From Methanoregulaceae archaeon (GTDB taxonomy: Bacteria; Armatimonadota; Fimbriimonadia; Fimbriimonadales; Fimbriimonadaceae), in NCBI GenBank assembly GCA_020850325.1, contig JADZEW010000013.1:1-64000 (forward strand): a stretch of DNA of 64,000 nt, given 5' to 3'. The notes under the pieces were generated by a model that saw only the letters and a program-made list of their open reading frames with translations, was not told the DNA's origin and searched no databases. Position numbers and translations under genes: made by a program. Shown one piece after another: positions 36,198 through 41,266 of the stretch (positions within the stretch are counted from its first letter, which is position 1; every line of letters begins with the position of its first letter).

Positions 36198-36224
36198 GCT
36201 CCAACCGTAGACTTGGGTTGGAGC
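36198..36224 (+). terminator. 9-bp perfect hairpin after membrane-protein gene
   Basis: GCTCCAACC (36198-36206) pairs with GGTTGGAGC (36216-36224), 8 nt after the stop of the plus-strand gene. No T-run follows. It may end the plus-strand message or form the 3' boundary of the minus-strand structured RNA region. Confidence 0.5.
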
Positions 36225-36523
36225 GTGGTCGCTCTTTGGCGGGATTATGGGTTCCCCGCATTGTCCGCCCGACCCGGATTGCTCCGTAGCCAGGCAAGCG
36301 CCTCAGCCGCCGACTTTTTCGAGAGGTTCGGCTCCCTCCTACATACCGCGTTGTTATGCCGTCTTCGCCCGGCCGAGGGCTGCTACCCCCGTTAAGCACC
36401 CGCTAAGGCGCAACCACGCTATTCCGACTGTACGCCGAGGACCTTGCGAGATCCTCCGCGCTCCTCCCTGGCCGAAGCCGGAGGAAACAGGCTGCTTTCA
36501 CACGATATGGGCCGCTCTTTCGC

Positions 36524-36599
36524 TGGGTAAACGTAGGGGATTTGAACCCCTGACATTCCACTTATGAGGCGGATGCTCTACCAACTGAGCTAACATTCA
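36524..36599 (-). tRNA. tRNA-Met(CAU)-like
   Basis: 76 nt including an encoded CCA. The D-arm GCTC/GAGC, the anticodon stem TCCGC/GTGGA with loop CTCATAA (anticodon CAU at 36564-36566), a five-base variable loop and the T-arm AGGGG-TTCAAAT-CCCCT all fold. The acceptor stem is weak: U1-A72, a G-U and a U-G wobble, and discriminator C73. It lacks the three G-C anticodon-stem pairs of initiator tRNA, so it is elongator Met or, after lysidine modification, Ile(CAU). It lies inside the noncoding structured region. Confidence 0.85.
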
Positions 36600-37115
36600 A
36601 TCGCCCGAACGACACGCGCGGCCTGGCGTTCCATGCCTTGTTAGGCACCGAATGCGCCGCACCGTTCTGCCCTTCCCCGAACCGCGGGTACCAGACGGTC
36701 AACCCGGACAACGTCCTCTCGGAGACCGAGAAGCCGCAACCCGTGCGACTGGAGCGAAGCTCTTCCGGCGGTACGGTCGAACCTCATCTCCCACTCTTCG
36801 GCTTTCACCCTTGGGCCTATTCGCGGGAGTTTTGCGGGTGCGAACCCGCGCGGACCTCAGCACTTGCCGTCGGCCCTACACTCCGGCATTCAGGTTCAGC
36901 GACCGACAAGATCGGTCGCCTGAGAAGCCTCGGCTTGCATGGTGGTCCTGACTCGCGCCAGGCGACCGGGATGGGCACCCGATCCTCTCACGACGTTACC
37001 GCCGCTTACCCCTTGCCTGGGCCATGCCCCAGGTCGTCACCCTCTCCGGTAGGCCGGTTAGGACAACGATTTCGTTCGACGGAACCTGGGTCGAGGATGT
37101 TCCCAAAGAAAGGCA

Positions 37116-37167: not shown

Positions 37168-37623
37168 CTAGAAGTTCTGGTTTGTCGGCATGTTTGGCGC
37201 ATCCGGCAAAGACTTGTTTGCCCACATGCGGAATACTGCGAACAGGCCGAAGACGGCGACCAAGATCAGTCCTCCGCCGAAGATGCGGCCCCAGTTCGGT
37301 CGTCCGCGATGGGCGAGATCACGAGACGCCTCCTGGATGGCCGCCGCCCCCTTCCTGCTCGATTCCGACGACGGGCCGCCGGTATTGGCGCCCCTCACCG
37401 CTGATGCCGCGTCGCCGTCGCCGGTAATCGAGGGCACCACCAAGTTTTCTGTTCGCGTAGGCGTGCTGCCCACTTCTCCCATCATCGCCCCCGTCTGCTC
37501 ACTCGCTCGCTGTTCCTGAGTCTTCTCAGGCGTGACGACAAGGGGCCGCGTGTCGTTGATTGGCGCAGGAGAAAGTGCGGCAACAAGCAACAGAGCAATC
37601 ACTGGAATCCATCGTCTGGTCAT
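37168..37623 (-). CDS. Small exported/anchored protein of the pilin cluster
   Basis: 151 aa from the ATG at 37623; the longer open frame overlaps the PilX-like gene. The N-terminal signal is RRWIPVIALLLVAALSPAP. A Ser/Thr/Glu-rich linker follows, and a second hydrophobic helix lies near residues 115-133 (WGRIFGGGLILVAVFGLFAV). The tail is short. It starts 4 bp after the PilX-like stop, so it is part of that operon. It may be a pilus-assembly accessory or membrane anchor, but no family was recognised. Confidence 0.65.
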   Translation of the reverse strand: MTRRWIPVIALLLVAALSPAPINDTRPLVVTPEKTQEQRASEQTGAMMGEVGSTPTRTENLVVPSITGDGDAASAVRGANTGGPSSESSRKGAAAIQEASRDLAHRGRPNWGRIFGGGLILVAVFGLFAVFRMWANKSLPDAPNMPTNQNF

Positions 37624-37627
37624 CTTC

Positions 37628-39490
37628 TTAGTAACCTCCGGTCGAGAATCCGCGGTCCTGCCACGTGCTGCGGAACAGCGTCGGCGAGCGCGGTAGGTCA
37701 ATGTCGATGAGCGGCTTTTGGTCAGCCGTTCGCTCACGGATTCGATTGTCGTAGTTCATCTTCATCGGCAGGCTGTACACGACCATCGCTTCGTCTTTCG
37801 AAATGATCGAGCCATTGAACTGCACGCCGCCGCCACCGGTACCGATGTTTCCGCCGCCGACGAAGTTGGTGTAAAGGACCGCGTCGATGACGTTCACGCC
37901 CTCGGCGACGCTGTTCATGTAGGCATCTGAGAACGTCGACTGGTAGCGCATCTTGCCGGTGTAGTCAATCTGCTTGGCGTCAAACGGGGGAATCCAGTTG
38001 CCAAGGTCGTCGTAGCGCCCCTTGGTGAAAGGAGGCGTCATGTACTTCAGCGGATACGTGTTCGTGAACTGTGTGGTGTTGCCCATGATCACCGAACCAC
38101 GCGCGGCAAGCCCGAGAATGTCCTTCTTCTCGTTTGCGTTATCGATAGACTGTGGGTCGTTGCCACGAAAGTCGGGCCCCGTCGTGTATCGAATCGAGCC
38201 CACGATGTGCACGTTGCGACCCGCGTAGATGGTCCCCTGTCCCTGAACATGGCCCTTGATGAGACAGTCCTGGGTAAAGGTCACCGGGCCCTGGATCTTG
38301 ATCGGCTTAGCGGCCGTTCCGACGAGGGCTGCAGAACCGGTAACCACTCCGTTGGTATCAATCCGCTGATACGCTCCCAACGTACTGTTCCAAACTTCGA
38401 CCTTGGCACCTTGGCCGTATCGCGGATTGGGTGTGCCGTCGCCGTACGTCGGCTTGTCATCAACCCAGTTCTCACTCAGGTTGATGTACCGATTAATGTC
38501 CGAGAGATCGGGCATGATGATCTCTTCTGTCGGCCGGGTGTCGAGGACGTCGACCGTGGCAGTTTGTCCTGACGATGTCCGCGTCCAGCCTTTGAGTCCA
38601 GTCGCGTCGCCGATGATCGCACCCGAAGTGCGGTCGCCGACGATAGAACCCTCGGTGTCGAACACGAAGTCGCGCCAGAGCTCGTACTCGGGGCTTCCTT
38701 TGGCGCCGTGAACTGCCGGGTTGTAGGCTTGGCGCATACGGGCATCCGTAGCGGATGAGGTTGCATACGTTGCGTTCGTTTGCTTGACCGGCGGGGTATT
38801 CACGAGGCCAATCGCCGCGGGCGTGAGTTTATCGTTGCTCGAAGCGAACACCGATCCGTTGATCGTTGGAGAGCCGTTCAGGAAGCTGAAGTTGCCATTC
38901 GCCCGCATGTCGCCGTTGACGATCAGGTTGGTTTGATTAAATCCATCCATCCAGCCGTAGTTGTTGACGAAGTAGGTGTAGTCAAAGACCTCCGAACGGC
39001 GGAGCGAGAATCGCGCCATCACATCGACGACTTTGCGCGGCTCACCCGCGTCGAGCGTCCCATTGCTGTTGCGATCGATCCAACCAACGGCACGTACCGT
39101 CACGAATCGGGTGTAGGTGTCGGTCCCGGGCATCGCGAAGTTCACAACGCTTGCCGCGTATGCTCCCACGTTGGGCAGCGTGCCCGAAAGGGCGGCCTGT
39201 GGGTTGGCGACCGACGCACCCGCGCATGCGTCTTCCATATCTTCAAAGCTCTGCGTCACCTTGAAGTTGCGCCAGAGGTTTCGAAGGAGCTCCTGCACGC
39301 CTGCTTCTGCGATGTGCGTCGTTTGGATTTCTTGGACCTGGCGCTGGGCGATACGCAAGTTCGAGCTGGAGGTATCGACATACGATGCTGCCGCCATGGA
39401 CAGCAGGATCATTACTCCCAGGACGGGCACCATGGCCGCCCCTTTCCGCCCCTTGTTCTTTCTGCGTTGCGCGTTCTTCATAGGGTTCAC
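37628..39490 (-). CDS. PilX-like large minor pilin
   Basis: 620 aa, GTG start overlapping the previous stop; an ATG lies 3 codons in. The N-terminus GRKGAAMVPVLGVMILLSMAA followed by a long helix (NLRIAQRQVQEIQTTHIAEAGVQELLR) matches PilX_N/pilus tip proteins. About 450 residues of beta-rich sequence follow with repeated short strands (GPVTFTQDCLIKGHVQGQG, GRNVHIVGSI), suggesting a right-handed beta-helix or similar. The size is far above a normal pilin, so it may be an exposed tip adhesin. This role is inferred. Confidence 0.75.
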   Translation of the reverse strand: MNPMKNAQRRKNKGRKGAAMVPVLGVMILLSMAAASYVDTSSSNLRIAQRQVQEIQTTHIAEAGVQELLRNLWRNFKVTQSFEDMEDACAGASVANPQAALSGTLPNVGAYAASVVNFAMPGTDTYTRFVTVRAVGWIDRNSNGTLDAGEPRKVVDVMARFSLRRSEVFDYTYFVNNYGWMDGFNQTNLIVNGDMRANGNFSFLNGSPTINGSVFASSNDKLTPAAIGLVNTPPVKQTNATYATSSATDARMRQAYNPAVHGAKGSPEYELWRDFVFDTEGSIVGDRTSGAIIGDATGLKGWTRTSSGQTATVDVLDTRPTEEIIMPDLSDINRYINLSENWVDDKPTYGDGTPNPRYGQGAKVEVWNSTLGAYQRIDTNGVVTGSAALVGTAAKPIKIQGPVTFTQDCLIKGHVQGQGTIYAGRNVHIVGSIRYTTGPDFRGNDPQSIDNANEKKDILGLAARGSVIMGNTTQFTNTYPLKYMTPPFTKGRYDDLGNWIPPFDAKQIDYTGKMRYQSTFSDAYMNSVAEGVNVIDAVLYTNFVGGGNIGTGGGGVQFNGSIISKDEAMVVYSLPMKMNYDNRIRERTADQKPLIDIDLPRSPTLFRSTWQDRGFSTGGY

Positions 39491-40077
39491 CGAATCAAGT
39501 CAGGGATATTGCGAAGGAAAATGGTTTCACGGCCTCGGCTGCTCACTTGATAGCTCTTAACCGCGTTCTTTTGGATCGCCAGTTGAACCGTCACTTGGCG
39601 AGTGATCGTCCCCGCCCCGGCCGTGAAGATCTGATAGGACGAGGCTCCGTTGGTCGAGATCGGATCAGTCAAAATGACCCCACTCGCCAATCGACGGCGA
39701 TTGCTGCCGATCACCAAGTCCAAGTTCGAGCCGACTCGCTCGATCCTACGATTGACCCCATCCCACACCGGCGGCACGGTGTAGTTTCCGTCTCCATCAA
39801 CGACCGGCATGCGATACGTTACGCCCATGCCACCAGCATCGACGGTAACGGCCATTGCCTGGCGAAGCTCAGAGCTAATCCGGCGGATCGCGCGTTGTGC
39901 GCTCGATTCGGCATCCATCGATCCACCGCCGCGGATCCAAGCTCCTGAGCCGCTGAGTAGTGCCGCAAAGGCGCCTGTAAGCACCATGACACTGAACACC
40001 GCCGCGGTGACGACTTCAACAAGGGTCGCACCTCGTCGTCGCCGGGCAGTTCTGAGCTGAGGCTGAAGGTGTTTCAT
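39487..40077 (-). CDS. PilW-like minor prepilin
   Basis: 196 aa. A prepilin cleavage site is seen as RRRGATLVEVV, with Glu at +5 after the Gly, and a hydrophobic helix VTAAVFSVMVLTGAFAALLS follows. The remaining beta-rich domain includes a heptad-like RRISSELRQAM. It is translationally coupled (ATGA) with the PilV-like gene before it and the PilX-like gene after it, the usual minor-pilin order. Confidence 0.85.
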   Translation of the reverse strand: MKHLQPQLRTARRRRGATLVEVVTAAVFSVMVLTGAFAALLSGSGAWIRGGGSMDAESSAQRAIRRISSELRQAMAVTVDAGGMGVTYRMPVVDGDGNYTVPPVWDGVNRRIERVGSNLDLVIGSNRRRLASGVILTDPISTNGASSYQIFTAGAGTITRQVTVQLAIQKNAVKSYQVSSRGRETIFLRNIPDLIR

Positions 40078-40514
40078 AGGTTTGCGATGAGCGTGGCCAG
40101 ACGAGCGGTGCGCGTCGTCCCACGGTCGTTGTAGGTCACTTCGACAGTGACACGGCGAAGATCGATCTCGAGCTGTTCGATGCGCAGGCGTCCGACTCCA
40201 TTGGGCAGAACATTGGCCGGATTGTCAAAGACCGCAGAATCTGCGTTCGTGAAACTGTAGGTGTTGGTTGCGACTGGCGTAACGTTGTCGATCAAACCGA
40301 AGAACGCGAGCTGCGAGGGAACCACGTTGGGATACCCGACGCCCCGAATCGCCTCAAGCTGCTTTTGAGCGAGGCCGGTTGCTTTGGTTAACAGATCCGA
40401 CTTCTCTCGCGAGGCCGTGGCAATAGGCATCGTCGCGCCGACGATCATGGCGCACAAGACCACAAGAAAGACGGCAATCAAGACCTCGATTAAGGAAAAT
40501 CCGCGACGTTTCAT
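40074..40514 (-). CDS. PilV-like minor prepilin
   Basis: 146 aa from the ATG at 40514, which has GGGAG four bases upstream; the frame is open further but without similarity. RRGFSLIEVLIAVFLVVLCAM is a textbook prepilin leader and helix. The rest has KATGLAQKQLEAIRG and a C-terminal sheet with Arg/Thr-rich strands. It is processed by a prepilin peptidase not present here. It is first of the three coupled minor-pilin genes. Confidence 0.88.
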   Translation of the reverse strand: MKRRGFSLIEVLIAVFLVVLCAMIVGATMPIATASREKSDLLTKATGLAQKQLEAIRGVGYPNVVPSQLAFFGLIDNVTPVATNTYSFTNADSAVFDNPANVLPNGVGRLRIEQLEIDLRRVTVEVTYNDRGTTRTARLATLIANL

Positions 40515-40620
40515 GACACTCCCAGGTTTGTTGTTCCGCACGGGCGGCTCTGAATCACGGGGGCCTTGCAAAACCTGTTGCATCTACCAGGTCCACGGCT
40601 AAAGACCGCGGAGATCGACC

Positions 40621-40661
40621 CAAAAACGAAGAGGGGGTGGGCAACCTGTGCCCACCCCCTC
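40621..40661 (-). terminator. Strong intrinsic terminator of the major pilin gene
   Basis: A 12-bp perfect stem (40631-40642 with 40650-40661, GAGGGGGTGGGC/GCCCACCCCCTC) with a 7-base loop is followed on the minus strand by TTCGTTTTTG. It separates the major pilin from the minor-pilin genes, so the latter need their own promoter or read-through. Confidence 0.92.
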
Positions 40662-40678
40662 AAACGATGCTCGTTACC

Positions 40679-41020
40679 TTACGGCAGAGCGTGGCCGGCG
40701 ACCGTACAGGTCGGGTTCGCATTGACGGCGGCGATGGTATAGGTACCAGCAGCCGGGCAAGCGGGCCAGGACTTCATGTACGTCGGCATCAGGTCACCCT
40801 GAACCGGCGTAGCATTGTTGGCCTGGTTGGTCTCCATCGCCCATTGCTCCTTTGCCGCTTCGATCTGGCGCAGGTTGGCAATACAGGTGCGAGTTCGGCT
40901 CGTGTTACGAGCCTGAATGAAGTTGGGCACGGCGATCGCCAGCAAGATGCCGATGATCAACACGACGATCATGATTTCGACGAGGGTAAAACCCTTGTTC
41001 TTCCTTCGAATGCGGTTCAT
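40679..41020 (-). CDS. Type IV pilin-like major pseudopilin
   Basis: 113 aa from the ATG at 41020 with a GGAGG-like site upstream. RRKNKGFTLVEIMIVVLIIG is a canonical class III signal, followed by LLAIAVPNFIQARNTSR. The C-terminal domain is short with two cysteines (CPAAGTYTIAAVNANPTC) that could form the closing disulphide loop. Small size and a private strong terminator suggest abundant expression as a major pilin or GspG/ComGC-like subunit. Confidence 0.9.
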   Translation of the reverse strand: MNRIRRKNKGFTLVEIMIVVLIIGILLAIAVPNFIQARNTSRTRTCIANLRQIEAAKEQWAMETNQANNATPVQGDLMPTYMKSWPACPAAGTYTIAAVNANPTCTVAGHALP

Positions 41021-41266
41021 GTAGCTCTTCGTCCTCCGACGTTGCAAGGTTTGCGGTCTTGCTGGTTGTCTTCCTTCCACTCCTTATGCTGAGAAGGACT
41101 GGCAAATCTACGGGGATTCACCGATTCCTGCTCTGGAGTATCTCTCCGACCGTAACCTCGGCAACACCATTCAAGATTGTCGGCATGTCGAGTCCTGCAT
41201 CCTCAGTGTTTGAGATCAACCAACTCGACTTTCATGAAGTGGCCGATCCTACGATAGAATGGGCGC

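What the first reader, a model, noticed from the sequence alone, without database searches (positions are those of the whole stretch)
36198..37110. Candidate giant ornate noncoding RNA with a tRNA inside it
Seen: ~900 nt with no credible protein gene, at least seven stable local stems, a minus-strand tRNA-Met(CAU)-like gene about two thirds along, a strong terminator of the previous operon just upstream, and a 9-bp hairpin at the far end. One stem (36437-36456) closes fully only on the minus strand, through a U-G wobble, and a cUUCGg tetraloop also appears only there. Established: GOLLD and ROOL are 500-900 nt bacterial and phage RNAs that often neighbour or contain tRNAs. Inference: this may be a new or divergent member of that class, here without phage genes around it.
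Basis: partly seen in the sequence, partly recalled or inferred. Interest (0 to 1): 0.85.

Follow-up and report, generated by a model that had tools for sequence, protein, structure and literature searches.

The report
Chromosomal GOLLD RNA carrying tRNA mimic
This stretch encodes an ~870-base folded RNA related to GOLLD, a phage RNA known to assemble into hollow cages, but here it sits among ordinary bacterial genes and carries a tRNA-shaped domain in the part that should face the cage interior.

Summary
The finding is real. A GOLLD-family RNA runs on the MINUS strand from ~37070 to ~36198. Rfam GOLLD (RF02032) matches 36667-36203 end to end (86.4 bits, E 9e-23) but under the 150-bit gathering score, so default annotation misses it. 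The tRNA-Met(CAU)-like element (36599-36524) lies in GOLLD's variable linker, which faces the cage interior in the published structure. Eight of 113 genomes of the class (Fimbriimonadaceae, Armatimonadota) carry a chromosomal homologue; a ninth, phage-type GOLLD lies beside endolysin and tail-fibre genes. Structure is strongly supported: 106 covarying pairs against 21+-4 in shuffled alignments. Flanks checked hold ordinary genes, and RNA divergence tracks RpoA divergence, so the RNA looks resident. All nine linkers hold a tRNA-shaped element, yet anticodons differ and several copies lost the T-loop, D-loop GG, U33 or 7-nt anticodon loop: a tRNA mimic more than a translating tRNA. Five of eight copies have an ECF-sigma-like GGAAC-N17-CGTC box upstream. 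Cage formation and function are inferred, not shown. tRNAs and pseudo-tRNAs inside GOLLD were already known; the chromosomal, possibly stress-regulated lineage is the new part.

The parts
36198..37070 (-). GOLLD-family RNA, about 870 nt; 5' end inferred ~7 nt after the promoter-like -10 box, 3' end at the terminal hairpin
   Evidence: RF02032 full-length match; conserved over its length in 8 loci; 5' end inferred, no transcript data
37076..37103 (-). ECF-sigma-like promoter GGAAC-N17-CGTC(GA)
   Evidence: Strict match in 5 of 8 homologues; 99 matches in 3.5 Mb, both strands; kept in the congener while surrounding sequence drifted; sigma class inferred
36668..37034 (-). 5' domain (cap domain of GOLLD)
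   Evidence: 55 covarying pairs vs 11.6+-2.9 in shuffles; model R1 matches phage GOLLD 5' domains
36203..36667 (-). 3' domain, Rfam GOLLD model positions 1-416
   Evidence: 86.4 bits, E 9e-23
36524..36599 (-). tRNA-Met(CAU)-like element in the GOLLD linker, CCA-like end encoded
   Evidence: ARAGORN, Rfam tRNA 62.6 bits, sits in the linker insertion of the GOLLD alignment
36437..36456 (-). Conserved hairpin with CUCGCAAG loop, probably P20/L20 of GOLLD
   Evidence: Loop identical in 6 of 7 full-length homologues, one variant; closes with a U-G pair on the minus strand only
36396..36411 (-). Hairpin, probably L21a, with self-complementary GC (AU in two homologues) in the loop
   Evidence: assignment to bridge B8 by model order, suggestive only
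36374..36393 (-). Hairpin, probably L21b, with GC (CG in one homologue) in the loop
   Evidence: suggestive only
36198..36224 (-). 3'-terminal 9-bp hairpin of the RNA
   Evidence: Folds at -15.5 kcal/mol; paired in the consensus; followed by a T-run in homologue L006
37117..37150 (-). Intrinsic terminator of the upstream pseudopilin operon, not part of the RNA
   Evidence: G+C-rich stem plus T5, -24.4 kcal/mol

Best explanation
A divergent, chromosomally encoded GOLLD RNA. It is transcribed from the minus strand, probably from an ECF-sigma promoter under some stress, as an ~870-nt RNA whose 5' (cap) and 3' (ring) domains fold and multimerise into a hollow RNA cage as shown for GOLLD env-38. 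The linker that faces the cage interior carries a tRNA-shaped domain. That domain is kept for its shape rather than for decoding, and most likely serves as tethered bait or cargo holding a tRNA-binding partner (ribosome, EF-Tu, synthetase or tRNA nuclease). Shown here: family membership, strand, both domains, tRNA slot, covariation, chromosomal location, slow evolution. Inferred: ECF control, cage assembly, role of the tRNA-like domain.
For: Membership: RF02032 1-416 at 86.4 bits, E 9e-23. Eight chromosomal copies plus one phage-type copy among 113 genomes of the class. Covariation: 106 compensated pairs vs 21+-4, energy z -26 in the RNA sense. 5' domain homologous to phage GOLLDs. Chromosomal setting: neighbours are glycosidases, peptidases, transporters, rpoA/rplQ. 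Constraint: 95% identity to the congener's RNA vs 81-86% in flanking DNA; RNA identity tracks RpoA identity, r 0.92 including the congeneric pair. tRNA-like element in all nine linkers, degenerate in most. Host already has three CAU tRNAs; closest host tRNA only 68% identical. Cage and interior linker: published cryo-EM of GOLLD (PMC12286853).
Against: No transcript or structure data for this RNA. Rfam score is below the curated cut-off. Oligomerisation evidence here is limited to self-complementary dinucleotides in two loops (GC/AU and GC/CG), which is suggestive at best. ECF box strict in only 5 of 8 copies and chosen after seeing the sequences. The window's own tRNA looks nearly canonical, so a decoding role cannot be excluded for this copy.
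Confidence: 0.68

Rival explanations
1. A true tRNA-Met gene embedded in a GOLLD transcript: the RNA is a long precursor from which RNase P and RNase Z release a working tRNA, and GOLLD is a carrier or delivery vehicle.
For: The window's element has intact D, anticodon and T loops and an encoded CCA-like end; its score is within the range of host tRNAs.
Against: Homologues change anticodon (Met, Ile-AAU, Cys, Ile-GAU, Pro) and lose T-loop, D-loop GG, U33 or loop size; the congener at 95% identity has an 8-nt anticodon loop and A.A at 1-72; host has its own three CAU tRNAs; in Mycobacterium no expression of the GOLLD pseudo-tRNA was detected (PMC6582537).
Confidence: 0.12
2. A leftover gene of a decayed prophage, with no present function in the cell.
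For: GOLLD is typically phage or prophage borne; distribution in the family is patchy (8 of 113 genomes).
Against: Strong compensatory change across genera, RNA better conserved than flanking genes between congeners, divergence follows RpoA, no other phage genes nearby in the loci checked.
Confidence: 0.1
3. Host-domesticated antiphage or anti-nuclease decoy: the tRNA-like domain is cut or bound instead of cellular tRNAs during attack (a special case of the best explanation).
For: tRNA-shaped fold kept with relaxed anticodon; GOLLD relatives are phage-borne or lie in tRNA clusters.
Against: No defence genes seen next to it; anticodon loops too variable for one anticodon nuclease; untested.
Confidence: 0.15

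Closest known systems
GOLLD RNA (RF02032; env-38 14-mer nanocage, PMC12286853)
   Same: Same 3' domain end to end, homologous 5' domain, similar total length (~870 vs 833 nt), linker in the same place, conserved CGCAA loop
   Different: Scores below Rfam's cut-off; encoded among ordinary chromosomal genes; ECF-like promoter; cage not demonstrated for this copy
Mycobacterial GOLLD with an internal pseudo-tRNA (PMC6582537)
   Same: A tRNA-like gene inside the GOLLD RNA that need not be a working tRNA
   Different: Mycobacterial copies lie in horizontally acquired tRNA clusters with an HNH gene; these do not
Phage GOLLDs in IMG/VR (L163, L166, L172)
   Same: tRNA-like element in the same linker slot and related 5' domain
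   Different: On viral contigs; other phage GOLLDs (L155, L160) lack the tRNA
ROOL RNA
   Same: Works alike according to the literature: giant RNA cage with interior linker, often near tRNAs
   Different: No ROOL match on either strand at E<=5; different architecture

Membership tests
GOLLD RNA (RF02032) | 3' domain matches the covariance model over its whole length | tested here: met
   Positions 1-416, 86.4 bits, E 9e-23
GOLLD RNA (RF02032) | Score above Rfam gathering threshold (150 bits) | tested here: not met
   86.4 bits; the relatives in the class score 79-118 bits. This is a curation threshold, not a biological feature; the cryo-EM study itself collected GOLLDs at 1e-5
GOLLD RNA (RF02032) | Two-domain architecture with a 5' domain of ~400 nt | tested here: met
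   5' domain present, covarying and homologous to phage GOLLD 5' domains
GOLLD RNA (RF02032) | Variable linker, sometimes holding a tRNA | tested here: met
   tRNA at 36599-36524 in the linker
GOLLD RNA (RF02032) | Phage, prophage or tRNA-array location (usual, not defining) | tested here: not met
   Neighbouring genes cellular; no phage structural genes in the flanks tested
GOLLD RNA (RF02032) | Self-complementary kissing loops L21a/L21b | tested here: inconclusive
   GC or AU in L21a, GC or CG in L21b across seven copies; few independent changes
GOLLD RNA (RF02032) | Forms a 14-mer cage | not testable with these tools
   Needs mass photometry or cryo-EM
ROOL / OLE / HEARO | Match to the respective Rfam model | tested here: not met
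   No match at E<=5 on either strand
Functional tRNA-Met | Canonical loops and conserved anticodon among homologues | tested here: not met
   Window copy near canonical, homologues not

The most novel reading that the evidence does not exclude
Bacteria of the Fimbriimonadaceae have domesticated a phage RNA nanocage as a resident, stress-regulated gene, and its interior cargo is a covalently tethered tRNA mimic kept for shape, used to trap a tRNA-binding factor.
Probability: 0.3. Interest if true: 0.85.

Novelty: new variant of a known kind. Interest (0 to 1): 0.62.

Why it matters
GOLLD is one of the few natural RNAs shown to build a cage, and what goes inside is unknown. A chromosomal lineage that always carries a tRNA-shaped domain in the interior-facing linker, with the decoding features often lost, gives a concrete and testable answer. 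It also suggests that GOLLD can be a cellular gene rather than only phage equipment, and that Rfam's cut-off hides such copies.

Tried and rejected
Integron attC-like reading of the GTTAGGC motifs (early thought from the sequence): dropped, these are parts of covarying GOLLD stems. Protein-coding reading: no family matches. Mobile RNA unit: suspected because flanks differ between genera, but the congener has it at the same locus and RNA divergence follows RpoA. The motif patterns for IMG/VR and GTDB contigs returned mostly chance hits; only one new copy (L092) came from them. The search of five unrelated genomes found no GOLLD and says nothing about absence. blastn against phages matches only the tRNA part in the rows listed.

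Full report
OBSERVATION. The interval holds no recognisable protein gene and one tRNA gene on the minus strand, 36599-36524, anticodon CAU. The minus strand folds better than every shuffle (z -3.6), the plus strand does not (z -1.0).

IDENTITY. With Rfam's default thresholds only the tRNA is reported. With an E-value threshold, GOLLD (RF02032) matches 36667-36203 (-) over the entire model, 86.4 bits, E 9e-23. The alignment keeps conserved GOLLD motifs (GCGAAAG, GAAAG, CUCGCAAG, GGGAA..AUAAUCCC), and the tRNA lies in the model's variable linker. Nothing for ROOL, OLE or HEARO appeared at E<=5.

RELATIVES. Searching the class (113 genomes) gave eight full-length hits of 79-118 bits, all in the same family. 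Named matching records are Fimbriimonadaceae (L061, L085, L092); one matching record (L053) is titled Chthonomonas sp. UBA2362. A further, truncated copy lies in the window's congener G001 (the record of L092). A model of the 5' domain found the eight chromosomal copies again. Seven chromosomal copies share 62-80% identity over ~840 nt, and L092 is 95% identical to the window; the phage-region copy L008 (G082) is at 44-49%.

STRUCTURE. RNAalifold on eight chromosomal copies predicts 236 pairs, 117 with double changes. With the tRNA slot removed, seven full-length copies give 106 covarying pairs against 21+-4 (maximum 31) in column-shuffled alignments, energy z -26; the opposite strand gives z -17. 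The 5' domain alone has 55 covarying pairs against 11.6+-2.9. The 5' model R1, searched in 358 kb of mostly viral loci, hits L008 (7e-7; the same place again in L013), L166 (9e-6), L172 (9e-4) and L163 (0.02), each upstream of a GOLLD 3' domain, and otherwise only one weak hit (E 4.8). Two hairpins in the position of L21a and L21b keep self-complementary dinucleotides (GC or AU; GC or CG), as reported for the symmetric kissing loops of the GOLLD cage (PMC12286853); with so few changes this is only suggestive.

LOCATION AND HISTORY. The window copy lies between a small unannotated + strand ORF and a pseudopilin operon. Other copies are next to metallophosphatase/peptidase, Na+/H+ antiporter/Ada, DeoC/SulP (6 kb from rplQ-rpoA), CorA/sulfatase and similar genes. 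The copies on short contigs (L010, L012) could be judged only partly. In contrast L008 lies between endolysin and tail-fibre genes. The congener has the RNA at the same locus, 95% identical where flanks are 81-86%. RNA identity follows RpoA identity (r 0.92, inflated by the one congeneric pair). Neighbourhoods differ between genera. The simplest reading is old residence with losses and rearrangements, though old transfers cannot be excluded.

PROMOTER. GGAAC-N17-CGTC lies 58-90 nt before the first conserved stem in L006, L007, L010, L011 and L092. The pattern with N16-17 occurs 99 times in 3.5 Mb counting both strands, no more than its reversed control, so about 0.001-0.002 per 100-nt window. 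Between window and congener the boxes are kept while the spacer and upstream sequence changed. The genome has about 20 sigma region-4 (PF08281) proteins. That this is an ECF promoter is inference from the consensus form, and the motif was chosen after seeing the sequences.

THE tRNA ELEMENT. All nine linkers hold a cloverleaf-shaped element. tRNA scores: window 62.6, L011 60.2, L009 56.8, L010 52.6, L092 50.9, L005 43.4, L006 33.6; L012 and L008 not found at E<=1. Arms are kept while loops decay: L012 has a GCAA loop on a perfect T stem and lacks U33; L005 and L092 have 8-nt anticodon loops; L010 and L011 lack the D-loop GG and normal T-loop; L008 has a 6-nt anticodon loop (arms parsed by hand). 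The element diverges faster than the rest of the RNA. Among the tRNA genes fetched from the host genome ARAGORN, three with CAU; the closest is 68% identical to the GOLLD element. Prior work reports a pseudo-tRNA inside mycobacterial GOLLD (PMC6582537) and tRNAs sometimes in the GOLLD linker (PMC12286853), so the presence of the element is known, whereas its constant presence with loss of decoding features in a chromosomal lineage is what this comparison adds.

MECHANISM. By homology to the solved 14-mer, the linker faces the cage interior. I propose a cage displaying up to 14 tRNA mimics inwards, made under stress, that binds a tRNA-recognising partner; ribosomes are said to bind GOLLD in pull-downs (PMC12286853). 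The steps from cage to partner are inference.

LIMITS. No expression data; metagenome-assembled genomes; eight chromosomal sequences; the cryo-EM study collected 806 GOLLDs at 1e-5 and may already include some of these genomes in its supplement, which I could not read. Its main text does not mention Armatimonadota or chromosomal copies.

Noticed in passing
L145:1537-1802 (+), L146:5745-6046 (-), L147:11886-12127 (-): Three viral contigs carry a ~240-300-nt intergenic sequence inside tRNA arrays that shares GACGGCAAGTGCTGAGGT with the GOLLD 5' domain and has repeated CUUAGCGG hairpins like the window's L21a. No Rfam match there in the two contigs scanned (L145, L147), no phage-collection match for L146; weak structure support from three sequences (z -3.4). 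Possibly an undescribed small RNA.
   Followed up: partly
G082:C5:412450-412922 (L008/L013): A phage-type GOLLD (118 bits) in the same bacterial family, between endolysin and tail-fibre genes, also with a degenerate tRNA-like linker element.
   Followed up: partly
L092/G001 C101 and C111, L010, L012: Several copies of this RNA sit at contig ends or on very short contigs; in G001 the assembly breaks inside it. Strong structure or repeats may disrupt assembly and hide copies from genome surveys.
   Followed up: no
G000:C19:7960-8020 (L255): A partial, degenerate tRNA-like sequence (39 bits) near a contig end of the window's genome; looks like a tRNA fragment, no second GOLLD was found in this genome.
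   Followed up: partly
window 37168-41080: Minus-strand operon with two N-methylation-motif pseudopilins and larger uncharacterised proteins, ending in a strong terminator just before the RNA.
   Followed up: no
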